Shown one piece after another: positions 39,729 to 56,164 of a stretch of DNA of 64,000 nt. Source of the DNA: Nocardia sp. BMG111209 (GTDB lineage: Bacteria; Actinomycetota; Actinomycetes; Mycobacteriales; Mycobacteriaceae); the NCBI RefSeq assembly GCF_000381925.1, contig NZ_KB907307.1:2604001-2668000 (forward strand). The letters are read 5' to 3'. A model generated the notes under the pieces. That model did no database searches and was not told where the DNA came from. It saw nothing but the letters and a program-made list of their open reading frames with translations. Both the position numbers and the translations under genes were made by a program. Numbering within the stretch: position 1 is the first letter of the stretch; every line of letters begins with the position of its first letter.

Positions 39729-40139
39729 TCAGTGCCGGTCGAGGTACGGCTGAGGCTCCGGGTCCGCCGGTATCGGTGTCTTCGCGGGGCGGTCGGCGAG
39801 TTTGAGCCAGACCACGCCGGAGATGATGACCGCCAGCCAGAAGGCCTTGCTCAGGGTGAGGGTCTCGTGGAACAGGACCGGCCCCAGCAGTGCGGCGCCG
39901 ACCGAGCCGAGCCCGGCCCAGACGGCGTACCCGATTCCGACGTCGATGTGTTTCAGGGCGACGCTGAGCGCGTACAGGGTGAGGAGGAAGAAGACTATCG
40001 CGACCAGCGACCAGCGCAGGAGGGTGAATCCGTGGCTTCCGCCGACGGACAGGGCGTAGCCGATCTCGAATCCTCCGGCGAGGAGCAGGGCGGGCCAGCC
40101 GCGGACGGTGCTGTCGTGTTCGTTGCTGTCGGCGGTCAT
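39729..40139 (-). CDS. SMR efflux subunit
   Basis: 136 aa, four TM helices. The membrane-embedded Glu of small multidrug resistance transporters is in GGFEIGYALS in helix 1 (EmrE Glu14 position). N- and C-terminal tails are longer than in EmrE. It follows a second SMR gene after 37 bp, giving the paired-subunit arrangement of heterodimeric SMR pumps (EbrAB or YkkCD type). It exports cationic or guanidinium-like compounds by proton antiport. Last gene of the deaminase-SMR operon. Confidence 0.87.
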   Translation of the reverse strand: MTADSNEHDSTVRGWPALLLAGGFEIGYALSVGGSHGFTLLRWSLVAIVFFLLTLYALSVALKHIDVGIGYAVWAGLGSVGAALLGPVLFHETLTLSKAFWLAVIISGVVWLKLADRPAKTPIPADPEPQPYLDRH

Positions 40140-40176
40140 CGTTCGATTCCTTTCGGTGGCGGATGCGGTACGAGCG

Positions 40177-40497
40177 TTATGCCGCACCGGTGAGCTGGAG
40201 GCCGACGACGCCGCCGATGATGATCGCGATGCCGAATGCCTTGCCCCAGGTGAGGCGCTGGTGGAACAGCGCGGCGCCGAGCAGCACGATCCCGACGCCG
40301 GCCACGGAGGTCCAGATCGCGTAGCCGACGCCGACATCGAAGGTGAGCAGCGCGAGGCTGAGGAAGTAGGTACCGATGCCGCCGCTGATCAGCGTGGCGA
40401 TCGTCCACGGAATGTTCCGGAAACCGGCGGCCTTGCCGGCGGCGATGGCGACGGTGATCTCGAAGACCACCGCGATGGCGAGGTAGAGCCAATGCAT
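40177..40497 (-). CDS. SMR efflux subunit (partner)
   Basis: 106 aa, the classical SMR length. The key Glu is E13 in AVVFEITVAIAA. Four helices end in GVVGLQLTGAA. It is upstream of the other SMR gene and 28 bp after the deaminase, so all three form one operon. The paired topology suggests a heterodimer in the cytoplasmic membrane. Confidence 0.9.
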   Translation of the reverse strand: MHWLYLAIAVVFEITVAIAAGKAAGFRNIPWTIATLISGGIGTYFLSLALLTFDVGVGYAIWTSVAGVGIVLLGAALFHQRLTWGKAFGIAIIIGGVVGLQLTGAA

Positions 40498-40525
40498 GGC
40501 TGATCCTTTCGGCTGTTGCTGTCGA

Positions 40526-41023
40526 TCACTGCCCGGCGACGGTGCCGTGCAGGTTCCGGTACAGGTGGAAGGGTTCGAGCGCTCGGCCGACGGGCAGGAA
40601 CTCGACGGTGTGCGCGGCCCGGCGCGGGTCGATCCCGAGCTGTGCGTAGCCGCTGCGGTAGTCGAATCCCCAGCGTGCCGCGGTGGCGGCGTCGACGGCG
40701 AAATGGATGCTCTCGACCCGGTGCTGCGTGGCGAATCGGTAGCACATGGCGCACGGTTCACCGGTCGCCAGCAGCCTCGTCCCGCGCAGGTCGGTGACCG
40801 CGCGTTCGCGCAGGGTGCGGCGCATCGCGACGATCTCCGCGTGAGCGGTGGGATCGCCGGTCTCGCGAACGCGGTTCACGCCGAACTCGGACCGGTAGCC
40901 GTCGTCGGACACGAGCTGCCCCACGAACGGGATTCCCCCGGACCGGACGTGCCGGATGCTGTGCTCGACGGCCCGGCCCATCAGGTTCTCGAGCAGTACG
41001 TGGCCGTCCGTGTCGCCGGTCAT
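40526..41023 (-). CDS. Nucleoside deaminase-family zinc enzyme
   Basis: 165 aa. The zinc site is THAHAEIV-like (here TAHAEIVAMRRTL near residue 58, His ligand and catalytic Glu) and TGEPCAMCYRF (Cys ligands). It deaminates a base, nucleoside or related amine. It is the first gene of an operon with a paired SMR pump, and an ATGTATGTACA motif lies about 130 bp upstream. Together they look like modification plus export of a toxic or waste compound. ATG at 41023; upstream frame is non-coding in composition. Substrate unknown. Confidence 0.8.
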   Translation of the reverse strand: MTGDTDGHVLLENLMGRAVEHSIRHVRSGGIPFVGQLVSDDGYRSEFGVNRVRETGDPTAHAEIVAMRRTLRERAVTDLRGTRLLATGEPCAMCYRFATQHRVESIHFAVDAATAARWGFDYRSGYAQLGIDPRRAAHTVEFLPVGRALEPFHLYRNLHGTVAGQ

Positions 41024-41153
41024 CTCGGGTCGCGCTCGATGTTCTCGGTGTCGATGATCGTTCTCGTCCGGTCCCGCACCCGGCCCGTCGGACTCGGTTC
41101 CGCGGTTTCCGCTGCCATGGTCACGCCTCCCTGCGCTGATGCTTCTAATTGCT

Positions 41154-41164
41154 TGTACATACAT
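41154..41164 (-). promoter_or_regulatory. MarR-type operator, site A (ATGTATGTACA)
   Basis: ATGTATGTACA on the minus strand, upstream of the deaminase-SMR operon and downstream of the MarR gene. Matches 10 of 11 bases, with one A/G swap, to sites C and D and all 11 to site B. Confidence 0.65.
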
Positions 41165-41211
41165 TTATCGACCGCTATTCGTGCCGGACGGTGCCCAGCG
41201 GGTGGGACCGC

Positions 41212-41703
41212 TCAGCCCGCTCCGGCCGACGGCCCGAGCCCGTCCACTCTGCCGAGCGCCCGGACGAGCGCGAGCGAGCCGACCCCGAGCCCGTCGCCGC
41301 GGACCTGGTCGAGAATCTGCTGGATCCGGCCCTCGAACGGTTCGTGCGCCGCGTCGAGCAGGGCCTCCCCCTGTTCGGTGATCACCGCGTACACGCCGCG
41401 ACCGTCCTCGAAGCACGTCTCCCGGCGGGTGAGCTGCTTGGCCTCGAGCCGGCCGAGCAGCCGGGTCACCGAACTCTGATTCAGGCCGATCCGCCGGGCG
41501 AGTTCGTTGACGCGCAACTCCTTCTCGGGCGCCGCGCTCAGATTTCGCAGCGCCCGGTACTCGGTGAGGGCGACCCCGTGCCGCTCGGCCAGCCATGCTC
41601 CCAGGCCCGCGTCCACCTCGGCCACGAAGGACGTCACCTGCAACCAGTCCTCGACGAGACGGCCCGCCGACGGGGCCACCTCGTCCCGATCCGATCGATC
41701 CAT
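41212..41703 (-). CDS. MarR-family regulator 1
   Basis: 163 aa. Winged helix-turn-helix: ELRVNELARRIGLNQSSVTRLLGRLEAKQLTRRETCFEDGRGVYAV includes helix 3, recognition helix 4 and the wing with the DxRG-like DGRG turn. The ATG at 41703 (or 41709) lies within the 11-bp operator motif, so the transcript may be almost leaderless and self-repressed. Faces the biosynthetic cassette on the plus strand and shares its motif. Its fold and motif use match the second MarR gene at the cassette's other end. Confidence 0.88.
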   Translation of the reverse strand: MDRSDRDEVAPSAGRLVEDWLQVTSFVAEVDAGLGAWLAERHGVALTEYRALRNLSAAPEKELRVNELARRIGLNQSSVTRLLGRLEAKQLTRRETCFEDGRGVYAVITEQGEALLDAAHEPFEGRIQQILDQVRGDGLGVGSLALVRALGRVDGLGPSAGAG

Positions 41704-41714
41704 GTACATACATG
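41701..41714 (-). promoter_or_regulatory. MarR-type operator, site B
   Basis: CATGTATGTACATG at 41701-41714 is a 14-bp near-palindrome that contains ATGTATGTACA and covers the MarR start codon; binding here would repress the regulator itself. Confidence 0.7.
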
Positions 41715-41906
41715 AAAAGGTAGCGGGTGACCCGGCGATAGGCAACCCCGCACTCCCCCTTCGGATTCCGCGCGCCGCGCGCCGGACGCCGCGAGTGCCG
41801 AGAACCGTCGCCGAGTCGGGACAGCGCGGTGTGATTCGGATTAACAGTCGGTTAAACACCGAGATCGAGGTGTCGGTTCGGCCGATTCCACGCAAACTCT
41901 AAACAT

Positions 41907-41917
41907 ATGTATGTGCA
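41907..41917 (+). promoter_or_regulatory. MarR-type operator, site C
   Basis: ATGTATGTGCA on the plus strand, 87 bp before the adenylation gene, inside the promoter of the biosynthetic operon. Identical to site D. Confidence 0.7.
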
Positions 41918-42003
41918 CACACTGTACGAACAATGCATGCGCATGTTGCAATCTAGTCGCAAAGTTCACGAAGCAGGGGTGTTTCAGAAGCGAGGGGATT
42001 CCG

Positions 42004-43443
42004 ATGGCAACACCAGGCACGGTCGCACGTATCCGGCAGATCGCGGCACGACAACCCGACCACACCGCGATCTCGTTCGGTCCGCAGCGCTGGAGCTACG
42101 GACAGCTGACCAGCACCGTCGACGACTGCCGTGCGCAACTGACGCGCACGGTGGACACCACGCACGCCACCATCGCCATGGCGGCACACAAGACCCCGCA
42201 GCGGATCGCGCTCGCCGCCGCCGCGATCGAACTCGGCCACAGCCTCCTGCTGCTGTCGCCGGAGCTCGGCACCGACATGTTCGACCACCTGGTGGAGCGT
42301 GCCGGATGCACCCACACGGTCGACATCTATCCGCGCGACGGGCGAATCACAGCGACTACCAACGGCTTTCGGCACGACCCGGATCAGCGGCAGAATCTGA
42401 TCCTGGCCACCTCGGGCTCCACCGGCCGGCCGAAGCTCGTGCCGCTGGGACCCGGCGCGGTCGACGCCTTCACCGACTGGTGCACGCGGATGTTCGACCT
42501 CGGCCCCACGAGCCGGGTGTGGAGCTATGCCCCGCTCAACTTCGACCTGTCGCTGCTGGACGTGTGGGCGAGCCTCGCCGCCGGCGCCGAGGTCGTCGCC
42601 CTCACGGCGGACGAGGGGTCCGACGGCGCCACGCTGGCGCGGCTGTTGCAGGACGCGCCGCCGACCGTGCTGCAGTCGGTGCCGTTGCTGCACCGGCTCG
42701 TTCACCCGCATCCGGTCACCCCGATCCGGTCCACCCGGCACGTCGTCGTGACCGGCGAACCGTTCGTGCGCGAACTCGCCGATCAGCTCGCGCACCGGTT
42801 CCCGGACGCCGCGATCCACAACGTCTACGGCAGCACCGAAACGAACGACAGCCTGCTGCACACCGTGACCGCCGCCGACCACGACCGGCCGCACATCCCG
42901 GTCGGCCGCCCCCTTCCGGGCGTCGCCGTCGTACTCCTCGACGGTGCGCACGCGGTGATCGACGGCCCCGGCGAGGGCGAACTCGTGGTCAGCACGCCGT
43001 TCCAGTCGGGCCGCTACCGACTCGCCGAACCGGACGGCGCCTTCGGCCCCTGGAATCCGCGGGAACCCGGCCGGACCTACTTCCGCACCGGCGATCACGC
43101 TCGCCGCGACGCCGCCGGCGTCCATCACCTGCTGGGCCGGCGCGACCATCTCGTCAAGGTTCGCGGCGTGCGCACCAACACCATCGAGGTGGAATCGGTG
43201 CTGGCCGCGGCGCCGGATGTCGCGGAAGCCGCCGTCGTCGCCACACCGCACGCCACCGAAGGTCACCGCCTGCACGCCTTCGTCGTCGCCGGACCGGACG
43301 TGGATCGCCTGTCGGTCCGCGGACATCTCGCGCGCCATCTGCCGCGCACCGCCCTACCGGCCACCTTCACCTTCCTCGAGTCCCCACTGCCGCGGACGCC
43401 GTCCGGCAAGACCGATCGGCAGCGCCTGCTCAGCTACCTGTGA
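42004..43443 (+). CDS. Stand-alone NRPS-type adenylation enzyme
   Basis: 479-aa amino-acyl-AMP ligase. Core motifs: A3 LATSGSTGRPK, A4 FDLSLLDVW, A5 NVYGSTETN, A7 YFRTGDHARRD, A8 GRRDHLVKVRG and A10 PRTPSGKTDRQ with the catalytic Lys. It lacks condensation and thioesterase parts and is followed directly by a free carrier protein, the layout of prolyl-AMP ligases that begin pyrrole-2-carboxyl pathways. It probably activates a small amino acid and loads it on the carrier. ATG at 42004 with a GAGGGG site. The specificity code cannot be read reliably by eye. Confidence 0.88.
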   Translation: MATPGTVARIRQIAARQPDHTAISFGPQRWSYGQLTSTVDDCRAQLTRTVDTTHATIAMAAHKTPQRIALAAAAIELGHSLLLLSPELGTDMFDHLVERAGCTHTVDIYPRDGRITATTNGFRHDPDQRQNLILATSGSTGRPKLVPLGPGAVDAFTDWCTRMFDLGPTSRVWSYAPLNFDLSLLDVWASLAAGAEVVALTADEGSDGATLARLLQDAPPTVLQSVPLLHRLVHPHPVTPIRSTRHVVVTGEPFVRELADQLAHRFPDAAIHNVYGSTETNDSLLHTVTAADHDRPHIPVGRPLPGVAVVLLDGAHAVIDGPGEGELVVSTPFQSGRYRLAEPDGAFGPWNPREPGRTYFRTGDHARRDAAGVHHLLGRRDHLVKVRGVRTNTIEVESVLAAAPDVAEAAVVATPHATEGHRLHAFVVAGPDVDRLSVRGHLARHLPRTALPATFTFLESPLPRTPSGKTDRQRLLSYL

Positions 43444-43479
43444 GGCGCGGCCGACCGACCGTCATCCGAAAGGAACTCC

Positions 43480-43737
43480 ATGACCGCCACCACCACCAAG
43501 GTCGCCTCCTACATCACCAGCTCCTTCGCCCGCGACCTCGTCGGCACCGAACTGCCCGGTGACGCCGATCTGCACGCGATGGGCATCGTCAACAGCCTGG
43601 GACTGGTCCGGCTCGTCTCCTGGGTCGGCCAGGAATTCGACATCCCCGTCGCCGAGCTGGATTTCACCCCCGACCAGTTCCACACGGTCGACCGCATCGT
43701 CGAGTTCATCCGGATCCACACCGACCGCCGGCCGTAG
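43480..43737 (+). CDS. Free-standing peptidyl/acyl carrier protein
   Basis: 85 aa. Phosphopantetheine Ser in MGIVNSLGLVRLV near residue 39. The usual Asp before Ser is Asn (VNSLG), seen in some carrier proteins of amino-acid-tailoring pathways. Immediately follows the adenylation gene (36 bp). Expected to carry the activated amino acid while the flavoenzyme and cupin act on it. Confidence 0.83.
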   Translation: MTATTTKVASYITSSFARDLVGTELPGDADLHAMGIVNSLGLVRLVSWVGQEFDIPVAELDFTPDQFHTVDRIVEFIRIHTDRRP

Positions 43738-43769
43738 CTCACCGGTTCGTCAGCAAGGAGTACACGCGC

Positions 43770-44147
43770 ATGTTCATCCGTGAGAAAGACAACGTCGACG
43801 GCGTCGACTGGGGCAACGGCCGCAGTTACCGGCTTCTGGTGGAGAACGACGGCCTGAACTTCGCTGTCGCGCATACGATCGTCACCGCCGGATCGGAATC
43901 CCGGCTGCAGTACACCCGCCACATCGAGGCCTGCTACTGCGTGAGCGGATCGGGCGAGGTCGCCAACGCCGACGAGACCGAGGTGTATCAGCTGCGTCCG
44001 GGCACCCTGTACGTCCTGGACCGGCACGATCCGCATCTCCTCCGCGCGCATTCCGGCGAGGATCTGCATCTGATCAGCATCTTCAACCCCCCGATCACCG
44101 GCACCGAGCGGCACACCCTGTCCGCGACCGGGTTCTCGAACTACTGA
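43770..44147 (+). CDS. Ectoine-synthase-like cupin (EctC family)
   Basis: 125 aa, the length of EctC. Strongly EctC-like core: ESRLQYTRHIEACYCVSG, then RPGTLYVLDRHDPH and ISIFNPPITGTE. Glu53, Tyr81 and His89 occupy the iron-ligand positions of ectoine synthase, all with the same offset (57/85/93 in the Paenibacillus enzyme, as I recall it). EctC cyclises N-gamma-acetyl-diaminobutyrate with loss of water, but no ectA or ectB is present. Here it may cyclise or dehydrate a carrier-bound or free amino acid. Cotranscribed with the adenylation and carrier genes. Confidence 0.85.
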   Translation: MFIREKDNVDGVDWGNGRSYRLLVENDGLNFAVAHTIVTAGSESRLQYTRHIEACYCVSGSGEVANADETEVYQLRPGTLYVLDRHDPHLLRAHSGEDLHLISIFNPPITGTERHTLSATGFSNY

Positions 44148-44161
44148 AAAGAGTTGAACCG

Positions 44162-44290
44162 GTGATTGACTGGACAAACGATCAACTCGCCCTGCGCGCG
44201 GCGGTCGGCGCATACGCGCGCGAACTGTCCGACGGGCACATCGACGACGACGTCGACGGCCGGTTCCGGCAGGACAAATGGAAACTGCTC
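44162..44290 (+). pseudogene. 5' fragment of acyl-CoA-dehydrogenase-type flavoenzyme
   Basis: GTG at 44162 after AAGAGTTG. 43 codons encode the N-terminal helix of an acyl-CoA dehydrogenase (DWTNDQLALRAAVGAYAREL and RQDKWKLL) before an IS30-family element interrupts. The frame resumes exactly at 45739. Joining both parts over one copy of the CTGCTC direct repeat restores a 376-aa protein of normal length. Confidence 0.9.
44285..44290 (+). repeat. Direct repeat CTGCTC flanking the insertion (left)
   Basis: CTGCTC at 44285-44290 and again at 45739-45744 bracket the element. It may be the target duplication, although 6 bp is longer than the 2-3 bp usual for IS30. Confidence 0.6.
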
Positions 44291-44314
44291 AGGTTCAACC
44301 GGTGGTCGCAACAC
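44291..44314 (+). repeat. Left terminal inverted repeat of the IS
   Basis: AGGTTCAACCGGTGGTCGCA followed by ACAC; pairs with the right end over 24 bases with 5 mismatches. Confidence 0.75.
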
Positions 44315-44333
44315 CCGAGGTCACGGAGGGTGT

Positions 44334-45731
44334 ATGGGAAGGCCATCGGATTGGATGCGAGAGGTGACCGGTCGTGCGCCGATGCGGTCACCGGGACATC
44401 CTGGCCACCAGCGGATAGTGGAGCGCCGTTTCTGGGACGAGATCGCCGAGGGGCTGCTGCCGACGGAAGCGGCTGTCGCAGTGGGGGTATCGCCTGTCAA
44501 GGGCACTCGATGGTTCCGTGATGCTGGCGGGATGTCGCCGTATTCGTGGAGCCCGCCGGGTGGCCGCTATCTGTCGTTCGCCGAGCGTGAGGAGATCGCG
44601 TTGCTGCGGGTGCAGGGCAAGGGTGTTCGGCAGATCGCGCAGGTGCTGGGCCGTAGCCCGTCCACCATCTCCCGGGAACTACGGCGCAACGCCGCCACCC
44701 GCGGCGGCACGCTCGACTACCGCGCCTCGGTTGCCCAGTGGAAGGCGGAGCTGTTCGCCCGGCGTCCGAAGGTAGCGAAACTGTCTGAGAATCAACAGCT
44801 TCGGGACTATGTCCAGCAGCGGCTCGCCGGTCGGATCGCCGACTCGAAGGGCAGGATCGTGGCCGGCCCGCGGACCGGAGCGTGGACCGGCCGCAACAAG
44901 CCCCACCGCTCGGACCGGGAATGGGTGCAGGCGTGGAGTCCTGAGCAGATCTCCCGGCGACTGAAGATCGATTTTCCCGGCGACGCGTCGATGCGGATCA
45001 GCCACGAAGCGATCTATCAGGCGCTGTATATCCACGGGCGTGGTGCGCTGGATCGTGAACTGATCCTGAACCTGCGCACCGGCAGGTCGCTGCGCATGCC
45101 ACGAGCCCGATCCAAGCGGGTGGCCTGGGCGCACATCACCGCGGACGTGCTGATCAGCGAGCGGCCCGCCGAGGCCGAGGACCGTGCGACCGTGGGGCAT
45201 TGGGAAGGCGACCTCATCATCGGCACCGACCGCTCCGCGATCGGCACCCTGGTCGACCGGACCACCCGATTCACCGTCCTGGTCCACCTGCCACGCGAAC
45301 ACGGATGGAGGGAGACGGCGCCGGTCAAGAACGGCCCGGCTCTCAGCGGCTACGGAGCACTGTCGATGAACAAGGCACTGGCTGCGGCGTTGAAGAAGGT
45401 TCCCGCCCCGATGCTGAAGTCCCTGACCTGGGATCGAGGGAAAGAACTGTCCGCACACGCGGCACTGACATCGAAGACTGGCATCCCGGTCTTCTTCGCC
45501 GACCCCCACAGCCCCTGGCAACGCGGAACGAACGAGAACACCAACGGCCTTCTACGGCAATATTTCCCGAAGGGCACTGATCTATCACGTTGGACCGCAA
45601 GGGATCTCGATGCGGTCGCTCACACACTCAACACGCGCCCACGGAAAGTGCTCGGATGGCGCACTCCGGCCGAAGCGATGGCGCATCACCTACAATCACT
45701 GCAACAGCAAAGTGTTGCGTCGACCAGTTGA
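44334..45731 (+). CDS. IS30-family transposase
   Basis: 465 aa. N-terminal helix-turn-helix with LSFAEREEIALLRVQGKGVRQIAQVLGRSPSTISRELRRN, the IS30 DNA-binding signature. Catalytic triad D293 (HWEGDLIIG), D367 (TWDRGKE) and E401 (NENTNGLLRQYFPKGTD), with 33 residues between the second Asp and Glu, as in IS30. ATG at 44334 follows GGAGG; the longer frame starts in the host gene and is not used. It appears intact. Confidence 0.95.
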   Translation: MGRPSDWMREVTGRAPMRSPGHPGHQRIVERRFWDEIAEGLLPTEAAVAVGVSPVKGTRWFRDAGGMSPYSWSPPGGRYLSFAEREEIALLRVQGKGVRQIAQVLGRSPSTISRELRRNAATRGGTLDYRASVAQWKAELFARRPKVAKLSENQQLRDYVQQRLAGRIADSKGRIVAGPRTGAWTGRNKPHRSDREWVQAWSPEQISRRLKIDFPGDASMRISHEAIYQALYIHGRGALDRELILNLRTGRSLRMPRARSKRVAWAHITADVLISERPAEAEDRATVGHWEGDLIIGTDRSAIGTLVDRTTRFTVLVHLPREHGWRETAPVKNGPALSGYGALSMNKALAAALKKVPAPMLKSLTWDRGKELSAHAALTSKTGIPVFFADPHSPWQRGTNENTNGLLRQYFPKGTDLSRWTARDLDAVAHTLNTRPRKVLGWRTPAEAMAHHLQSLQQQSVASTS

Positions 45732-45735
45732 ATCC
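45712..45735 (-). repeat. Right terminal inverted repeat of the IS
   Basis: On the minus strand GGATTCAACTGGTCGACGCA followed by ACAC; 19 of 24 bases match the left end. Confidence 0.75.
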
Positions 45736-45738
45736 GCC

Positions 45739-45744
45739 CTGCTC
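45739..45744 (+). repeat. Direct repeat CTGCTC flanking the insertion (right)
   Basis: Second copy of the CTGCTC that precedes the IS; three bases (GCC) lie between it and the right inverted repeat. Confidence 0.6.
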
Positions 45745-46746
45745 GCCGAGGCCGGTGTATTCACCCTGCCCGCGGCGACCGAATACGGTGGCCTGGCACA
45801 GTCGGTCGTCACGACGATGGGCGTCCTGGAGGAACTCGGATTCGCCTGCCGCGACGGCGGATTGGTGTTCTCGGCCTGTACTCAGCTGGCCAGCAGCGTG
45901 ATTCCCGTCAACCGGTTCGGCAAGCCCGCGCTGAAGGCGACGGTGCTGCCGGCGCTGTGTGACGGATCGATGATCGGCGCCCACGCGATCAGCGAACCCG
46001 CCGCCGGGTCGGACGCGATGGCCATGACGACCACGGCGACCGTCCGCGACGAGCAAGTCGTGCTCAACGGCACCAAGGCATTCGTGTCCAACGGGCCGAT
46101 CGCGGATATCGTCGTGGTCTACGCCAAAGCCGAGGACGGCGGGCTGACCGCCGTCGTGGTCCCGACCGACACCCCGGGTGTCGTGCGCGGCAGGCCGATC
46201 GAGAAGATGGGCCTGCGCACCTCGCCACTGTGCGAACTGTTCCTCGACGACGTACGGGTTCCGGCGCACAACGTGCTGAGCAGTCCGGGCAACGGATACT
46301 TCGTCCTCGACTACGTGATGAAGCGCGAAATCCTGTTCTCCTTCGTCGCCAATGTCGGCGAGATCCGGCGCCGGATCGACGACGTCACCGAATACACCTG
46401 CGGGCATAGCCAATTCGGGCAGCCCCTGTCCACCTTCCAGGCGGTGTCGCACCAGATCGTCGAGATGCGGATGAATCACGACACCGCACGGAAGTGGCTC
46501 TACGACACCGCGGTCCGGCTCATGAACAACCGCGACATCACCACGGACATCGCGTTCAGCAAGATCATCGCCAGCGAGGCCGCGGTCAGTTCGGCGCACA
46601 CCGCGGTCCGACTGCTCGGCGGGTACGGCTACATGCGCGAATACGGCATCGAGAAGGACCTGCGCAACGCGGTCGCCGGGACGATCTACTCCGGGTCCAC
46701 CGAAGTGCAGAAGAACAAACTCGCGTCGCTGCTCAACCTCACCTGA
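45739..46746 (+). pseudogene. 3' fragment of acyl-CoA-dehydrogenase-type flavoenzyme
   Basis: 336 codons in the frame continuing from the 5' fragment: AEAGVFTLPAATEYGG, FAD/substrate motif GAHAISEPAAGSDAMAM, FVSNGPIADIVVVYAKAE, and the C-terminal helical region with SQFGQPLSTFQAVSHQIVEM. The usual catalytic Glu position in YEGT is Ser (IYSGST). The FQAVSHQIVEMR segment resembles prolyl-carrier-protein dehydrogenases. It probably oxidised the carrier-bound amino acid. The fragment could still be translated from an internal start but lacks the N-terminal helices. Confidence 0.9.
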
Positions 46747-46762
46747 CCGGAGGGATCCCCCG

Positions 46763-47425
46763 ATGAATGCGCTCCTCGCGCCCACGCCCTACCTCGACCA
46801 TTCGCATCCGTCCGTCGCCGAGTTCACCGCCGCCGCGATCGGCGATCGGTCGAACACGTTGCGCGACAAGGCGGTCGACCTCTACTACGCCGTCCGCGAC
46901 GGTGTGAACTACGAGGTGTACGGCACCGACATCTCCCCCGACGGACTGCGCGCCAGCGCCGTCCTGTCCGCCGGCCGGGGGTTCTGCCTGCACAAGTCGA
47001 TCCTCTACGCCGCGACCGTCCGCAGCGTGGGGATCCCGAGCCGGATCCTGTGCTCGCGCGTCCGCAACCACCTGGCGTCCCCCGGTCTGCGCGCGCTCGT
47101 CGGCGGTGAGGTCTTTCTCCACTGGTACAACGAGATTCACCTCGACGACCGCTGGATCAAGGCCACCCCGGTGTTCAATCGGCTGCTGTGCCGGATGTAC
47201 GGCATGGAGTCGCTGGAGTTCGACGGCAGATCCGACTCGATCTTCCATCCCACCGCCGACGGCGGCCGCATGGAATTCCTCGACGAGGAACTGGTTTTCG
47301 ACGAGGTCGACCCCGACCGCTTCACGACGCTGATCGCGCAGGCCCATCCGGCGATGGTCACCGACCGCGGGACCGTCCCGGGCGACGGGGTGCTCGCCGC
47401 CGAAGCCCCGGATGTCGCGTCATGA
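46763..47425 (+). CDS. Transglutaminase-like (TGc) protein
   Basis: 220 aa. Cys-protease-like core: RGFCLHKSILYAATVRSVGIPSRI holds the catalytic Cys, then FLHWYNEIHLDDRWIKATPVFNRLL with the His. The third (Asp) residue is not clear after the His strand. The family often catalyses amide bond formation, cleavage or transfer, and can release carrier-bound aminoacyl groups. 16 bp after the flavoenzyme; overlaps the DsbA-like gene (ATGA). Confidence 0.83.
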   Translation: MNALLAPTPYLDHSHPSVAEFTAAAIGDRSNTLRDKAVDLYYAVRDGVNYEVYGTDISPDGLRASAVLSAGRGFCLHKSILYAATVRSVGIPSRILCSRVRNHLASPGLRALVGGEVFLHWYNEIHLDDRWIKATPVFNRLLCRMYGMESLEFDGRSDSIFHPTADGGRMEFLDEELVFDEVDPDRFTTLIAQAHPAMVTDRGTVPGDGVLAAEAPDVAS

Positions 47426-48024
47426 CCACGATCGACATCTACTCCGACTACGTCTGCCCCTACTGCATGCTCGCGGAGACGGTGATCGACGAGATCGCCG
47501 GCGATCGGACGGACGTCGAGATCCGTTGGCGGCCTTTCGAACTGCGCCGATACCCGGCGCCGACGCTGCGGCCGGAGGACGACTACCTGCCCGCGGTGTG
47601 GAGCCGCTCGGTCTATCCGATGGCGCGGCGCCTCGGCGTCGACATCACCCTGCCGACGATCTCGCCGCAGCCGTGGACCCACACCGCATTCGAGGGATTC
47701 CACTACGCCGACGAGCGCGGCGTGGGAAACCCTTACACCACAGCGGTTTTCCGGTCGTTCTTCCGAGAGGACCGCGATATCGGCGACATCGGGGTACTCA
47801 CCGGCATCGCCGCCGGACTGGGCCTCGACACCGCCGACTTCCGGGACGCACTCGAGCAGCGCCGCTACCGCGACACCCATGCCCGCGCAATCACACACGC
47901 CGTCGACGATATCGAGGTGACCGTCGTACCGACCATCCTCATCGGCAACAGGCGGTTCAGCGGCGTTCCCGACCCCGCCGATCTGCACCGCGCGATCGAC
48001 GCCGCCGCACGACCGCTCCCGTAG
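47422..48024 (+). CDS. DsbA-family thioredoxin-fold oxidoreductase (FrnE-like)
   Basis: 200 aa. The CPYC active site (C12-P-Y-C15 in SDYVCPYCML) is that of DsbA/FrnE-type proteins, and VTVVPTILIGNRRFSGV gives the cis-proline loop. No signal peptide, so cytoplasmic. FrnE-like proteins occur in polyketide and peptide clusters as oxidoreductases or isomerases. ATG at 47422 overlaps the TGc stop. Role in the pathway unknown. Confidence 0.87.
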   Translation: MTTIDIYSDYVCPYCMLAETVIDEIAGDRTDVEIRWRPFELRRYPAPTLRPEDDYLPAVWSRSVYPMARRLGVDITLPTISPQPWTHTAFEGFHYADERGVGNPYTTAVFRSFFREDRDIGDIGVLTGIAAGLGLDTADFRDALEQRRYRDTHARAITHAVDDIEVTVVPTILIGNRRFSGVPDPADLHRAIDAAARPLP

Positions 48025-48057
48025 TACCGGCAGCCGCCCGGATCGAAAGGTAGCCAC

Positions 48058-48831
48058 ATGATTTCGCCCCACCCCGACGGCTGGTCCACCGGCATGCACA
48101 TCGGATTCATCGTCCCGCACGCCGATATCGGCCCCGAGGCCGAAGCGCAGACCCTGCTCGCCGGACAGGCCACCGTCCACGGCGGCCGCGTCCACTTCGC
48201 CGCCATGCGCGCCGGCGGTGAGATGGACGACAAGATCGCCCACCAGCCGGTCACCGATTTCACCCAGCCACCCCACATCGACGAGGCGGTGGCCGCACTC
48301 GCACAATCCCCGTTGCACGCCATCGCACTCGCGTTCACCAGCTCCTCCTACAAACACGGTGCCGACGCCGAACGCGCGCTGCTCGACCGGCTGGCCCCAC
48401 ATGCGCGCGGAATACCGCTCAACACCACCTGCACGGCCGCGACCGCCGCCCTCCGAACGCTCGCCGCGAAAACGGTCGCGATCTACAACCCGCCGTGGTT
48501 CGACGAGGGCCTGAACGAACTCGGCGCGACGTACTTCACCGCGGCCGGTTTCGCCGTCGGCCACCGATCGGCCGTCGAACTGCCCAGCCGGCAGCTGGCC
48601 ATAACACCCGAAGGCCTGCACGACTACGTCACCCGCACCGTCGGCGACGAGGACGCGATCTTCGTCGCCGGCAACGGACAACGCGCCATCGGGGCCATCG
48701 AGGCGCTCGAACGCACCATCGGCCGGCCGGTGCTGACCGCCAACCAGGTGCTGACCTGGAAATCGCTCACCGACGCCGGTCGTGACCTGCACGCCCCGGC
48801 CTACGGCCGACTGCTGACCCGGCACACCTAG
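48058..48831 (+). CDS. Asp/Glu-racemase-fold protein (maleate isomerase-like)
   Basis: 257 aa. The overall pattern (GFIVPHADIGPEAEAQTLL opening, LNTTCTAATAALRTL, NQVLTWKSL end) is that of maleate isomerase and arylmalonate decarboxylase. Both catalytic Cys positions are changed: the first block reads AFTSSS where ACTSGS is expected, and the second reads AGNGQR where SCTNLR is expected. Cys125 is at another spot. It may be a non-cysteine lyase or isomerase, or a scaffold. Last gene of the cassette; a strong hairpin follows. Confidence 0.75.
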   Translation: MISPHPDGWSTGMHIGFIVPHADIGPEAEAQTLLAGQATVHGGRVHFAAMRAGGEMDDKIAHQPVTDFTQPPHIDEAVAALAQSPLHAIALAFTSSSYKHGADAERALLDRLAPHARGIPLNTTCTAATAALRTLAAKTVAIYNPPWFDEGLNELGATYFTAAGFAVGHRSAVELPSRQLAITPEGLHDYVTRTVGDEDAIFVAGNGQRAIGAIEALERTIGRPVLTANQVLTWKSLTDAGRDLHAPAYGRLLTRHT

Positions 48832-48840
48832 GTCCGGTAT

Positions 48841-48881
48841 CGACACCGGTGACGACGGGCCGCCCGTCATCACCGGTGTCG
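48841..48881 (+). terminator. Strong hairpin terminator of the biosynthetic cassette
   Basis: A 20-bp stem with one mismatch (48841-48860 against 48862-48881, essentially no loop base) begins 10 bp after the last stop. One of the longest stems in the window. Confidence 0.75.
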
Positions 48882-48938
48882 TCCAGCGGACGGTGCCGAC
48901 CCACCGCGATCGCCATCTCGCGGCTGGCGGGGAAATGA

Positions 48939-48949
48939 ATGTATGTGCA
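48939..48949 (+). promoter_or_regulatory. MarR-type operator, site D
   Basis: ATGTATGTGCA, identical to site C, 34 bp before the MarR2 start codon; fits self-repression. Confidence 0.7.
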
Positions 48950-48982
48950 TACTGGTGCCGGGGCAAGCAAAGGACAGAGCAC

Positions 48983-49498
48983 ATGACCGCCACCCAACCG
49001 GTACCACCGTCGTCCACCCGGATTGCGGCACTGTCCCCCGACGGTCAACGCTGGATGGCACTGACGCTGCTGCACACCGAGGTCCAGGCGCGCATCGAGC
49101 GCGAACTCCAGCGAAAGGTCCGCATCACCTTCTCCGAACTCGCTGCCCTGCACGCCCTTTCGGAGAATTCGCTCGGAGAACTGCGCATCCAGGAACTGGC
49201 CGACGTCACCAGCCTGAACCAGAGTTCGGTGTCACGCCTGGTCTCCCGCCTCCAGGAAACCGGCCTGACCGAGCGCCGTACCTGCGAATTCGACCGCCGC
49301 GGCGTCTACACGGGCATCACCGAGAAGGGCCGCGAGGTCCTGCACACCGCCACCGGCATCTACGAACACGCGCTCCGCGCCAGCATCGACGCGATCCCCA
49401 CCCCGAACTCGGCAACCAGCCTGCGCAACGCAATCGCCGCAATGCCCGTCACCGCGGCCGACGAGACCGACCACCCGACCGGCGACAGCCGCCCCTGA
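48983..49498 (+). CDS. MarR-family regulator 2
   Basis: 171 aa. Winged helix-turn-helix LRIQELADVTSLNQSSVSRLVSRLQETGLTERRTCEFDRRGVYTGIT; the recognition helix (NQSSVSRLVSRLQ) is nearly the same as that of MarR1 (NQSSVTRLLGRLE), so both may bind the same operator. ATG at 48983 after AAAGGA. It closes the cassette. Confidence 0.9.
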   Translation: MTATQPVPPSSTRIAALSPDGQRWMALTLLHTEVQARIERELQRKVRITFSELAALHALSENSLGELRIQELADVTSLNQSSVSRLVSRLQETGLTERRTCEFDRRGVYTGITEKGREVLHTATGIYEHALRASIDAIPTPNSATSLRNAIAAMPVTAADETDHPTGDSRP

Positions 49499-52467: not shown

Positions 52468-53892
52468 TCACCGCTCAGGACCGGCTGCGCGGCGGTACCA
52501 GCTTTCGGCTTCGGCGAGGTCACCATGTGCCTCGAGAAGGTTACCCAGGTTGGTCATCGCATCCGGGTCACCGTCGTCGGCGCCGCGGCGGTACCACGTT
52601 TCGGCTTCCGCCAGGTCACCACGTCGCATGAAGAGGTTCCCCAGACTGTTCATGGCGGCCAGGCTGCCGGCGGCTTCGGCGTGGCGGTACCAGGTTTCGG
52701 CTTCGGCCAAGTCACCGCGCTCCTCGCAGAGGTACCCCAGGGCACCCATCGCGGCCATGTTGCCGGCGCCGGCACCGCGGCGGAACCAGGTTTCGGCTTC
52801 GGCCAAGTCACCACGTCGCTGGAGGAGGTACCCCAGGCTGGCCATCGTGGACTTGTTGCCGACATCGGCACCGCGGCGGAACCAGGTTTCGGCTTCGGCG
52901 AGGTCACCACGCTGCTCGAGCAGCCCCCCGAGATTGTTCATCGCGTACGCGTTGCCGGCGGCGGCGGCCTTGCGGTACCAGTCCTCGGCTTCCCGCAGTT
53001 CACCACGCCTCTCGAGCAACCATCCGAGTTTGTTCATCGTGCGCGCGTCGCCGGCGGCCGCGGCTTTGCGGTACCAGTCCTCGGCTTCCCGCAGTTCACC
53101 ACGCTCCTCGAGCAGCCACCCCAGACTGTTCATCGCGTCCGCATTGCCGGCGTCGGCGGCGCGCCGGTACAGGTATTCATCTCCTGGTTGCCCGAACAGG
53201 CGTAGTTCTCCGGCGGCGTCGGTAGTGCGTCGCCGCGGGCGGGGGTGCCCGTCACGGTGCAGGTGCCGGTCGGTTTCCTGGTATAGCTGGTCGAGCGTAC
53301 CGCCGGGAGTCGCGGCTGCGGCGGCCAGCAGGGCGGCGGTGAACGCGGTATTGCGGTCACCTGCCGGGGCGAAGGACGGTTCGTTGGCCGAGCTCGACGC
53401 GATCGTGTACGTGCCGCGCAGATCGGTCTGCCCGGCGATCAGACCGGGCAGGTCGGCCATGGCCTCGAACGCACGGCCGGCGAAACAGCAGTCCAGGATC
53501 AAGACCTTGGCGCGGGCAGGGCTGTCGAGGATCTCCTCACGCAACGTCTCGAACGCGACCGTGGTCCATCGGAGGTCGTCCGGGTCGGTGCCGGGGACGG
53601 TGAGGTACAGGCGGCCCTTGCTGTCGAGCAGGCCGTGGCCGGCGTAGTACACCAGCAGCACCTCGGTGGCTGCCCGCGCGGCACGGCCGACCACCGTCCC
53701 TACCTCGGTAGCACTGCCGGGGTCGATCACGGTCTCGCACTGATCGCCGGTGAGCGCGCCACCCGGCCCGACGAGGGTATCGGCGAGATCGATGACGTTC
53801 GCTGCAGCGGCGGGGATCGCGGCCAGGTGGTCGTAGCGCGCCGCGCCGATCAGCACGGCTCGCGACCCCCCGGCGCGAAGAGAGCCGGTCAC
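52468..53892 (-). CDS. Caspase-domain protein with Sel1/TPR-like repeats
   Basis: 474 aa. Residues 10-200 are a caspase-fold (C14) protease: His86 in VYYAGHGLLD and Cys136 in LILDCCFAGRA (D-C-C-F-A-G in place of DxCHSG). A linker follows (about 200-236), then seven near-identical 32-residue repeats (from EYLYRRAADAG to AESWYRRAAG), giving 96-bp DNA repeats. Such bacterial metacaspase-like effectors with repeat sensors occur in conflict systems. Its start overlaps the EACC1-like gene by 4 bp. ATG at 53892. Confidence 0.88.
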   Translation of the reverse strand: MTGSLRAGGSRAVLIGAARYDHLAAIPAAAANVIDLADTLVGPGGALTGDQCETVIDPGSATEVGTVVGRAARAATEVLLVYYAGHGLLDSKGRLYLTVPGTDPDDLRWTTVAFETLREEILDSPARAKVLILDCCFAGRAFEAMADLPGLIAGQTDLRGTYTIASSSANEPSFAPAGDRNTAFTAALLAAAAATPGGTLDQLYQETDRHLHRDGHPRPRRRTTDAAGELRLFGQPGDEYLYRRAADAGNADAMNSLGWLLEERGELREAEDWYRKAAAAGDARTMNKLGWLLERRGELREAEDWYRKAAAAGNAYAMNNLGGLLEQRGDLAEAETWFRRGADVGNKSTMASLGYLLQRRGDLAEAETWFRRGAGAGNMAAMGALGYLCEERGDLAEAETWYRHAEAAGSLAAMNSLGNLFMRRGDLAEAETWYRRGADDGDPDAMTNLGNLLEAHGDLAEAESWYRRAAGPER

Positions 53893-54421: not shown

Positions 54422-56110
54422 CTACGCGAAACGAACAGGGAGCCTTTCGATCCCACGCAGCACCAGATTCCGCCGGTACGGCACCTCGGCGGTGGTCATG
54501 GTCATCCTCAGCCCCCGCCGCACCAGTTCCTGCAACAGGATCTCCATCTCCAGCCGGGCCAGTGGTGCGCCGAGGCAGTAGTGGATGCCCAGGCTGAAGG
54601 TGAGGTGCCGCTTCACCGGGGCGGATCCCGCGTAACGGGTGATGTCGAACTTGTCCGGGTCCGGGAAGGCCGCCGGGTCGCGGTTGGCCGAACCGAACAG
54701 CAGTGCCACGCCCTCGCCGGCGGCGAAGGTGTGGCCGGCGATCTCCGTCTGCTCGTGGGCCAGGCGGGTGGTCATGTGGACCGGGGAGTCGTAGCGCAGC
54801 ATCTCCTCGACGGCGGGGCCGGCGAGTTCCGGGTTCGCGCAGAGCAATTCGTATTGGTCGGGGTTGCGGATCAGGGCGAGGATGCCGTTGCCGACCAGGT
54901 TGACGCTCGTCTCGTGGCCGGCTACGAGCAGGGTGACGCAGGTTGCGAGTACCTCGTCCAGGGTAAGTGCGTCGCCCTGCTCTTCGACCTGGGCGAGGCT
55001 GCTGATCAGGTCGTCGGCCGGTTCGGCGCGGCGGCGTTCGATCAGGTCGCGGAAGTAGGCGACGAATTCTTTGGCGGCTTGGGTGCGGGCCTGGCGTTCT
55101 TCCTGGTGGAGCAGGCGGTCGGGGTCGAAGCCGCGGGCCAGGGCGTGGGACCAGCGCTGGAGGTCGGGGTGGTCCTCGGCGGGGGCGCCGAGCAGTTCGG
55201 CGATGATCGTCAGGGGTAGGGGGTAGGCCAGTGCGGTGATCACGTCGACCTCACCGGCTTCGACGACCGCGTCGACCAGTTGCTTGACCAGTTGCTCGAT
55301 CCGGGGGCGCAGGCGGCTGATGGTGCGGGCGGTGAACGCCTTGCTCACCAGGCCGCGCAGGCGGGTGTGGTCCGGCGGGTCCATCCACAGGAACGAGGTG
55401 GGCAGGTCGACGTGTTCGACGCCGGGGTGGAACAGGTCGGCCTCGTGGGCGTGACTCCAGGTGTTGTCCTCGAGGATCGCGACGCAGTCGGCGTAGCGGG
55501 TCACCAGGTGGACGCCCAGGGGGGTCGACACCAGGGGGGACTTCTCGCGTGCCGCGGCGTAGCGCGGGTACGGATCGGGCCAGTGTTTCGGGTCGAGTGC
55601 GTCCAGCGCGGCGCCGGGGTTCGGCGGGGCCGGTGTTTCCTCGACTGCGGGGGCGGCGGGTGAGTACACCAGGCAGGTGGTGGTGCCGTGGGCGACGAGG
55701 CGGCCCTTGGCGTCGGTGACCCGGCCCTCGGCGGTGGCCGTGCGGCGGCCCGCGTGCAGAACCTTTGCCTCACAGGTGAGTACGTCGTCCTCGAGGCCGA
55801 CCGAGCGGATGAAGTTCACCTTCAGTTCCAGGGTCGTGTACAGCGCGCCGTCCTCGATGGCGGTGTAGACGGCGCTGCCCATCGCGGTGTCCAGCAGGGT
55901 GGAGATCACGCCGCCGTGCACGGTGAACAGGGCGTTCGCGGCCGCGGGGGACGGCTTCAGCGTCCACACGGTGCGGCCCTGCTCGAGGGTCTCGAGCAGG
56001 ACGCCCAGGGAGTGGCCGACGCCGATGCCGGCGTCGATTCCGTGGTCCACCAAGGCTTTCAGGTCGCGCAACCGGCGTTGCAGGGTGGTCTCGGCGTGGT
56101 CCACGGTCAT
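54422..56110 (-). CDS. Thioesterase-cytochrome P450 fusion
   Basis: 562 aa from ATG at 56110. Residues 1-150 are a PaaI-type hotdog domain (ANALFTVHGGVISTLLDTAMG with the HGG motif; FIRSVGLEDDV strand). A Pro/Ala linker (about 153-170) joins a P450 of about 390 residues with I-helix LVAGHETS, ExxR followed by YDSPVHMTTR, and haem loop [15 protein letters not shown]. The P450 half resembles the one at 28402-29643. A fused thioesterase and P450 is rare and suggests hydrolysis tied to oxidation of a fatty acyl substrate. It is the second gene after a P450 (54-bp gap). Confidence 0.9.
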   Translation of the reverse strand: MTVDHAETTLQRRLRDLKALVDHGIDAGIGVGHSLGVLLETLEQGRTVWTLKPSPAAANALFTVHGGVISTLLDTAMGSAVYTAIEDGALYTTLELKVNFIRSVGLEDDVLTCEAKVLHAGRRTATAEGRVTDAKGRLVAHGTTTCLVYSPAAPAVEETPAPPNPGAALDALDPKHWPDPYPRYAAAREKSPLVSTPLGVHLVTRYADCVAILEDNTWSHAHEADLFHPGVEHVDLPTSFLWMDPPDHTRLRGLVSKAFTARTISRLRPRIEQLVKQLVDAVVEAGEVDVITALAYPLPLTIIAELLGAPAEDHPDLQRWSHALARGFDPDRLLHQEERQARTQAAKEFVAYFRDLIERRRAEPADDLISSLAQVEEQGDALTLDEVLATCVTLLVAGHETSVNLVGNGILALIRNPDQYELLCANPELAGPAVEEMLRYDSPVHMTTRLAHEQTEIAGHTFAAGEGVALLFGSANRDPAAFPDPDKFDITRYAGSAPVKRHLTFSLGIHYCLGAPLARLEMEILLQELVRRGLRMTMTTAEVPYRRNLVLRGIERLPVRFA

Positions 56111-56164
56111 CGGGTCCTCGTTCCCTTCGTGCCGCTGGTGAGATATGAGCAACTGCCGGATTCC

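What the first reader, a model, noticed from the sequence alone, without database searches (positions are those of the whole stretch)
42004..48831. Unusual small-molecule cassette: A enzyme, carrier, EctC-like cupin, flavoenzyme, TGc, DsbA, racemase fold
Seen: a stand-alone adenylation enzyme (42004-43443), a carrier protein, an ectoine-synthase-like cupin with iron-ligand residues Glu53/Tyr81/His89, an ACAD-type flavoenzyme, a transglutaminase-like protein, a CPYC DsbA-like protein and an Asp/Glu-racemase-fold protein, in order with tight spacing or ATGA overlaps and closed by a long hairpin. Established: adenylation + carrier + ACAD-type dehydrogenase is the pyrrole-2-carboxyl module (PltF/L/E type), and EctC closes a ring by dehydration. 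I know of no described pathway with both. Inference: a carrier-bound amino acid is oxidised, cyclised by the cupin and released by the transglutaminase-like protein. It could make a cyclic amidine or heterocycle.
Basis: partly seen in the sequence, partly recalled or inferred. Interest (0 to 1): 0.85.

Follow-up and report, generated by a model that had tools for sequence, protein, structure and literature searches.

The report
IS-broken aminopyrrole pathway, showdomycin-like core
The gene cassette most likely turns glutamine into a reactive aminopyrrole by the same first steps as the antibiotic showdomycin, followed by a different, uncharacterised set of genes, and in this strain a jumping gene has broken one of its enzymes.

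Summary
The cassette is the middle of a larger cluster (39729-49498) with two SMR exporters, a TadA-like deaminase and two MarR regulators. Its flavoenzyme (ACAD) gene is split by an IS30-type element.

A described pathway with these parts exists: in showdomycin biosynthesis L-glutamine is cyclised to 2-amino-1-pyrroline-5-carboxylate, loaded on a carrier, oxidised and hydrolysed (PMC8724604, passages). I infer the same core here.

The core recurs. Of 79 loci found through their EctC gene, in a Pseudonocardiaceae-like family and a Streptomyces-like genus, 72 carry A + ACAD, 71 of them a carrier. Five A-pocket residues are identical in the window and all 52 loci read. Four cluster classes share the core. 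One has the C-glycosynthase family of showdomycin; the window's class (eight complete matches) lacks it. TGc is absent from the 17 loci with a ketosynthase and present in 54 of the 55 others, which suggests chain release. The 'racemase-fold' protein lacks both family cysteines.

Verdict: new variant of a known kind; core well supported by homology, product unknown.

The parts
39729..40139 (-). SMR-family transporter, subunit a (start codon inferred)
   Evidence: PF00893 72.1 bits; best NCBIfam SugE 64.8 bits, below its cut-off of 126; homologues in class I loci
40177..40497 (-). SMR-family transporter, subunit b
   Evidence: NCBIfam SMR hits, best 51.2 bits, below cut-off
40526..41023 (-). TadA-like zinc deaminase, HAE and PCxxC motifs intact (start codon inferred)
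   Evidence: PF00383 51.1 bits; motifs kept in 11 of 11 homologues aligned
41212..41709 (-). MarR-family regulator 1 (start codon inferred)
   Evidence: PF12802 44.2 bits
41701..41714 (.). near-palindrome CATGTACATACATG over the inferred start of MarR1; overlaps a 3-mismatch match to the motif below
41907..41920 (+). candidate MarR operator ATGTATGTGCACAC, upstream of the A gene
   Evidence: 2 exact matches of ATGTATGTGCAYAC in the window, 0 in 100 shuffles
42004..43443 (+). stand-alone adenylation enzyme, pocket code DLLQVTVDSK
   Evidence: best stand-alone A enzyme among solved structures is an L-prolyl-carrier-protein ligase (6o6e)
43480..43737 (+). peptidyl carrier protein
   Evidence: PF00550 26.7 bits; serine in NSL
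43770..44147 (+). EctC-like cupin, proposed glutamine (or glutaminyl-carrier) cyclase
   Evidence: PF06339 118.7 bits; WGNG insert; Asn38 of EctC replaced by Ala34
44162..46746 (+). ACAD-type dehydrogenase gene, interrupted: 5' piece 44162-44285, 3' piece from about 45744
   Evidence: pieces searched apart: best rows shown are 44-48% (5' piece) and 56-58% (3' piece) identical to intact relatives; best NCBIfam prolyl-PCP dehydrogenase RedW 287.5 bits, cut-off 650
44286..45743 (+). IS30-type insertion element with transposase; ends approximate
   Evidence: HTH_38 72.7 bits and rve 28.9 bits, the latter below its cut-off; inverted ends 44294-44314 / 45712-45732; second genomic copy
46763..47425 (+). 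TGc protein, proposed release enzyme (thioester hydrolysis or acyl transfer)
   Evidence: PF01841 54.9 bits; Cys75 and His120 in 54 of 54, Thr135 at the usual Asp in 54 of 54; model pLDDT 92.1, fold like arylamine N-acyltransferases and ShGdmF
47422..48024 (+). FrnE-like DsbA-family protein, CPYC
   Evidence: PF01323 98.5 bits, best solved match FrnE 5cp1, CPxC in 8 of 8 homologues aligned
48058..48831 (+). Cys-less relative of EutA / arylmalonate decarboxylase / maleate isomerase
   Evidence: PF17645 61.5 bits; EutA 67.8 bits, cut-off 318; Phe93 and Gly205 at the two Cys places in 29 of 29
48841..48881 (+). long hairpin, no T run
48893..49498 (+). MarR-family regulator 2 (ORF; true start probably downstream, 48935 or 48983)
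   Evidence: PF12802 41.2 bits
48939..48952 (+). candidate MarR operator ATGTATGTGCATAC

Best explanation
The cassette is a showdomycin-type aminopyrrole assembly line. Steps: (1) the EctC-like cupin condenses the alpha-amino and side-chain amide groups of L-glutamine, free or on the carrier, to the cyclic amidine 2-amino-1-pyrroline-5-carboxylate; (2) the A enzyme activates and loads it (or Gln) on the stand-alone carrier; (3) the ACAD oxidises it to the aromatic 2-aminopyrrole-5-carboxyl thioester, which would pull the otherwise unfavourable cyclisation; (4) the TGc protein releases it. In the class of cluster to which the window belongs, the free aminopyrrole is then worked up by the deaminase, the Cys-less EutA/Amdase relative and the FrnE-type DsbA protein. 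I guess this gives a small deaminated or decarboxylated, maleimide- or iminopyrrolone-like electrophile. It would be pumped out by the paired SMR transporters and controlled by the MarR proteins. In this strain step 3 is broken by the IS30-type insertion. Steps 1-4 are inferred by homology to published chemistry; nothing was shown at the bench. The work-up is a guess, and the confidence below is for steps 1-4 only.
For: Published: SdmE cyclises L-Gln, SdmC activates, SdmD carries, then oxidation and hydrolysis (PMC8724604, passages); canonical EctC makes ADPC from Gln slowly and reversibly (PMC5924519, passages). Conserved core: 72 of 79 loci have A + EctC + ACAD, 71 of those a PCP. Same A pocket in the window and the 52 core loci read: D235, Q278, T301, D330, K517 in 53 of 53, S331 in 52 of 53, the full DLLQ start in 51 of 53 (the 20 Streptomyces-like loci were not read). 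These include five loci with a PsuG-like protein (PF04227 confirmed by Pfam in L086), beside an HAD phosphatase in L087. EctC: Fe ligands kept in 79 of 79; Asn38, one of the substrate-contacting residues (PMC6344544, passages), replaced in 79 of 79. KS and TGc exclude each other: 17 KS-only, 54 TGc-only, 0 both, 1 neither. The window's class: 8 loci with the complete gene set.
Against: The loci were found through EctC, so the counts say how often EctC brings A, PCP and ACAD, not the reverse. The sdm cluster itself was not fetched; the link goes through a review and through loci with the same families. TGc homologues also occur without a close EctC (6 of 98 other relatives; best EctC there 41%). 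EctC proteins near the window's in the tree stand alone in Micrococcus, Brachybacterium and Dermacoccus. Seven of 79 loci lack A or ACAD. ACAD is broken in this strain. The pocket is not the standard Gln code as I recall it. The work-up rests on family names only.
Confidence: 0.75

Rival explanations
1. The pathway stops at the saturated cyclic amidine: TGc transfers 2-amino-1-pyrroline-5-carboxyl to an amine, giving a noformycin/anthelvencin-like amide (structures recalled). With ACAD broken this could be what the strain makes now.
For: The ACAD is disrupted while the neighbouring genes are open; the TGc model resembles arylamine N-acyltransferases and geldanamycin amide synthase; SMR exporters would fit a cationic amidine (inference).
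Against: ACAD accompanies EctC and A in 72 of 79 loci, so the family's pathway includes oxidation; I recognised no amine-building genes in the cluster.
Confidence: 0.12
2. A proline-derived pyrrole-2-carboxyl module (PltF/PltL/PltE type) with an unrelated EctC-like passenger.
For: The best stand-alone solved relative of the A enzyme is a prolyl-carrier-protein ligase; ACAD's best NCBIfam hit is the prolyl-PCP dehydrogenase.
Against: The pocket has invariant Q278/T301/D330, unlike the Pro code as I recall it; the EctC genes bring A and ACAD with them in 72 of 79 loci; the ACAD hit is far below its cut-off.
Confidence: 0.06
3. In this strain the cluster is a recent pseudo-pathway: the IS insertion ended function and the remaining genes will decay. 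Not exclusive of the best explanation, which is about the family.
For: IS in ACAD with a 99.9% identical sister copy, so the insertion is recent; no other match to the Amdase-like protein in 400 other genomes drawn from its family.
Against: The other genes are open with intact motifs.
Confidence: 0.5
4. The cupin makes ADPC from free Gln as a compatible solute and the neighbours are unrelated.
For: ADPC formation by EctC is published; solitary EctCs lie close in the tree.
Against: Tight operon; EctC comes with A, PCP and ACAD in 71 of 79 loci; a separate ectC locus serves ectoine.
Confidence: 0.04

Closest known systems
Showdomycin (sdm) biosynthetic cluster, Streptomyces showdoensis
   Same: Stand-alone A, PCP, Gln cyclase, oxidation and hydrolysis (PMC8724604, passages). 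Loci with a PsuG-like protein share the window's A-pocket pattern, EctC, ACAD, TGc and an Amdase relative.
   Different: No tblastn match to PsuG-like or HAD queries in the window; the window has SMR, deaminase, DsbA and MarR genes instead, and its ACAD is broken. The passages I read do not say that SdmE is EctC-like or that the oxidase is an ACAD.
Ectoine synthase EctC
   Same: Family by sequence, iron ligands, ring-closing dehydration to an amidine
   Different: No ectA/ectB beside it; Asn38 replaced, WGNG insert; lies outside the clade of 15 EctCs that I labelled canonical (100/99; ect neighbours were checked only for the own-genome one)
Prolyl-carrier-protein to pyrrole modules (PltF/L/E, RedW)
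   Same: A + PCP + ACAD logic
   Different: Extra cyclase, different A pocket, substrate inferred to be Gln or its amidine
Arylmalonate decarboxylase / EutA / maleate isomerase
   Same: Superfamily by sequence
   Different: Both catalytic cysteine places (recalled, read on the alignments) are Phe and Gly in 29 of 29

Membership tests
Showdomycin-type aminopyrrole core | stand-alone A enzyme and carrier protein | tested here: met
   A pocket of the same pattern as in loci with a PsuG-like protein
Showdomycin-type aminopyrrole core | Gln cyclase | tested here: inconclusive
   EctC-like protein with iron ligands present; activity not tested, SdmE sequence not seen
Showdomycin-type aminopyrrole core | intact oxidase | tested here: not met
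   ACAD gene present but split by an IS30-type element
Showdomycin-type aminopyrrole core | release (hydrolysis) enzyme | tested here: inconclusive
   TGc present; KS/TGc exclusivity supports release; activity not tested
Showdomycin cluster proper | C-glycosynthase (SdmA) and phosphatase (SdmB) | tested here: not met
   no tblastn hit in the window for PsuG-like (3 queries) or HAD (1 query) proteins
Ectoine synthase | ectA/ectB neighbours and Asn38 of the substrate pocket | tested here: not met
   separate ectC locus elsewhere
Pyrrole-2-carboxyl (Pro) module | proline-specific A pocket | tested here: inconclusive
   code DLLQVTVDSK; the Pro code is recalled, no activity data
Asp/Glu racemase superfamily enzyme with Cys chemistry | one or two catalytic cysteines | tested here: not met
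   Phe93 and Gly205
Transglutaminase-like catalytic triad | Cys-His-Asp | tested here: inconclusive
   Cys75 and His120 in 54 of 54; Thr135 at the expected Asp by my own reading of the motif
Noformycin/anthelvencin-type amidine amide | product structure | not testable with these tools
   no chemistry available; structures recalled

The most novel reading that the evidence does not exclude
2-Aminopyrrole-5-carboxyl-S-carrier is a general actinomycete building block that feeds at least four tailoring logics. One (the window's class) is an enzymatic version of the showdomycin autoxidation, giving an exported thiol-reactive maleimide- or iminopyrrolone-like warhead via a deaminase, a Cys-less Amdase relative and a DsbA protein. 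Another feeds the aminopyrrole, in place of anthranilate, into a duplicated, remodelled TrpD-F-C-A(-B2) pathway to make a pyrrole-fused tryptophan analogue.
Probability: 0.3. Interest if true: 0.85.

Novelty: new variant of a known kind. Interest (0 to 1): 0.6.

Why it matters
If true, a glutamine-to-aminopyrrole module, known to me from one antibiotic, underlies a large and apparently unexplored family in rare actinomycetes and Streptomyces-like genomes. Databases name its key gene 'ectoine synthase', which may hide it. It could give a role to part of the solitary EctC proteins, whose function is called unresolved in PMC5924519 (passages). It also offers thiol-reactive and tryptophan-like chemistry that can be tested enzyme by enzyme.

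Tried and rejected
Rejected: canonical ectoine locus (no ectAB beside it; a separate ectC locus elsewhere); functional 'racemase' (no catalytic Cys); showdomycin cluster proper (no C-glycosynthase or phosphatase match). Paper searches that gave nothing direct: EctC + adenylation + amidine (0 papers); anthelvencin/noformycin and kin (5 papers, listing only); EctC or TrpD with A/ACAD clusters (listings only); TGc-type release (listing only). The lugdunomycin paper PMC12022981 (passages) and PMC4795551 (passages) did not bear on the product. The showdomycin enzymology paper is not held. Rfam gave no match over its thresholds. The MarR-like motif with up to 3 mismatches is weak (7 found, 2.83 expected, 4 of 100 shuffles with as many); only the two exact copies stand out. 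In 7 other class I loci, 5 have matches with 2-3 mismatches and 2 have none.
Full report
WHAT IS THERE. ORF listing and Pfam/NCBIfam scans confirm every named gene. On the minus strand to its left lie two SMR transporters, a TadA-like deaminase and a MarR gene; to its right lies a second MarR gene. Two exact copies of ATGTATGTGCAYAC stand before the A gene and at the start of the second MarR gene (none in 100 shuffles). The ACAD gene is split by an IS30-type element (about 44286-45743; imperfect inverted ends). The genome has one other copy of the transposase; the element there is 99.9% identical over 1463 bases, so the insertion is recent. The two ACAD pieces, searched apart, match intact relatives at 44-48% and 56-58% in the best rows shown. 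The genome has a second ectC (186.7 bits) with neighbours that read by eye as ectA, ectB and ectD, so the cassette's cupin is probably not needed for ectoine.

DISTRIBUTION. Among 99 relatives 65 have some EctC match; apart from the window's own the best is in G071 (53%), the rest are at most 41%. The Amdase-like protein has no match at E 1e-20 in 400 other genomes drawn from the window's family. An even draw of 396 genomes of the phylum gave 3 with a close EctC, the window included. In the family of G071, 53 of 297 genomes match at 1e-25. Equal contig lengths identify members as Actinokineospora, Kibdelosporangium, Saccharopolyspora and Actinopolyspora, hence 'Pseudonocardiaceae-like'. In the genus of G121, which I take to be Streptomyces because a same-length contig is named so, 30 of 295 match at 1e-28 with another EctC (L087) as query. 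I fetched 59 of the 65 places (left out: one place each in G1008, G1030, G1034, G1056, G906 and G875) and 20 of the 40 places. Of these 79 loci, 72 have A + EctC + ACAD; of the 72, 71 have a PCP and 54 a TGc. The seven without the core are L083, L101, L105, L112, L113, L131 and L132. Because the loci were found through EctC, these counts say what EctC brings with it, not the reverse. Five EctC loci from Micrococcus, Brachybacterium and Dermacoccus show no other cassette gene; one of these contigs is only 4 kb.

FOUR CLASSES (my sorting by genes found by tblastn). Class I (the window's): SMR, deaminase, DsbA, Amdase relative, MarR. It is complete in 6 of 59 and 2 of 20 loci; L175 and L177 lack a DsbA match, and L082 is partial. 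In L175, L177 and L178 the SMR genes lie about 8 kb from EctC. Class II: TrpB2-like enzyme, 17 of 59 (12 with an EamA exporter) and 2 of 20. Class III: TrpD, TrpF and TrpA homologues, TrpC in 29 of 31, sometimes TrpB2; 20 of 59 and 11 of 20; none of the 31 has a TrpE match. Class IV: PsuG-like protein, 5 of 59 and 2 of 20; PF04227 confirmed in L086 and L159, an HAD phosphatase beside it in L087. Three core loci fit no class, and L161 is a contig end with an SMR gene.

MECHANISM. The review states that SdmE cyclises L-Gln, SdmC activates the 2-amino-1-pyrroline-5-carboxylate, SdmD carries it, and oxidation and hydrolysis follow before SdmA (C-glycosynthase, YeiN-like) and SdmB (phosphatase) act (PMC8724604, passages). 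Class IV fits this part list. The A pocket, read against a recalled PheA fragment, has D235, Q278, T301, D330 and K517 in 53 of 53 (52 core loci of the first group plus the window; the 20 Streptomyces-like loci were not read), S331 in 52 and the DLLQ start in 51. One substrate for all classes is therefore likely. In the EctC tree the 15 rows I labelled canonical form a clade (100/99). The window pairs with L077 (99/93), with solitary Micrococcaceae-type proteins next (97/84). The tree has few columns, and class I is not one clade in it. Iron ligands are kept in 79 of 79, while the place of Asn38, a substrate contact in EctC (PMC6344544, passages), is Thr, Ala or Cys in 79 of 79. TGc is missing from the 17 loci with a ketosynthase and present in 54 of 55 without; L044 has neither. 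This suggests that TGc and KS are alternative ways off the carrier; related genomes make the Fisher value (2e-10 on the 52) too optimistic. The TGc model (pLDDT 92.1) resembles arylamine N-acyltransferases and geldanamycin amide synthase at TM about 0.4-0.5: thioester chemistry, not a specific reaction. The Amdase relative and UbiX do not occur together (0 both, 23 and 8 alone, 21 neither, of 52), a hint that both may remove a carboxyl group. But the Amdase relative has lost both cysteine places (Phe93, Gly205 in 29 of 29).

AGAINST MY READING. TGc homologues exist without a close EctC (6 of 98 other relatives). The A code is not the standard Gln code as I recall it. In this strain the oxidation step is probably dead. 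No product is known.

VERDICT. The first half of the pathway is a known kind (showdomycin core). The window's class, without C-glycosynthase and with its own transport, deaminase and redox genes, is an undescribed variant as far as the ten paper searches could show (open-licence papers only, mostly listings seen).

Noticed in passing
L044, L102, L104, L106-L111, L115, L117, L118, L120-L126, L128; L163-L172, L174: Class III: TrpD/F/A (TrpC in 29 of 31, some TrpB2) homologues beside A-PCP-EctC-ACAD and no TrpE match. The TrpD motif KHGN (anthranilate site, recalled) is K(T/S)GS in the 22 class III loci the pattern could read, 9 of 31 not read. Ten of ten class III genomes checked keep a separate trpD over its cut-off. 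PMC13055916 (passages) notes a trpF close to the showdomycin cluster.
   Followed up: partly
L043 8238-12300: Five EctC-like tblastn matches in a row in a proteobacterial MAG contig.
   Followed up: no
L033-L037: Solitary EctC genes near the window's in the tree, in Micrococcus, Brachybacterium and Dermacoccus, between unrelated genes; possibly free-Gln cyclases.
   Followed up: partly
window 54422-56152 (-): One 576-aa frame that reads as a PaaI-like hotdog thioesterase fused to a cytochrome P450 (read by eye).
   Followed up: no
window 52468-53892 (-): Frame that reads as a caspase-like domain with Sel1-type repeats (read by eye).
   Followed up: no
window 40425-40523 (+): ARAGORN calls a tRNA-Ser here, over an SMR gene on the other strand; probably a false call.
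   Followed up: no
L086-L088, L091, L100, L159, L173: Clusters with a PsuG-like protein: candidate showdomycin-like C-nucleoside producers.
   Followed up: partly
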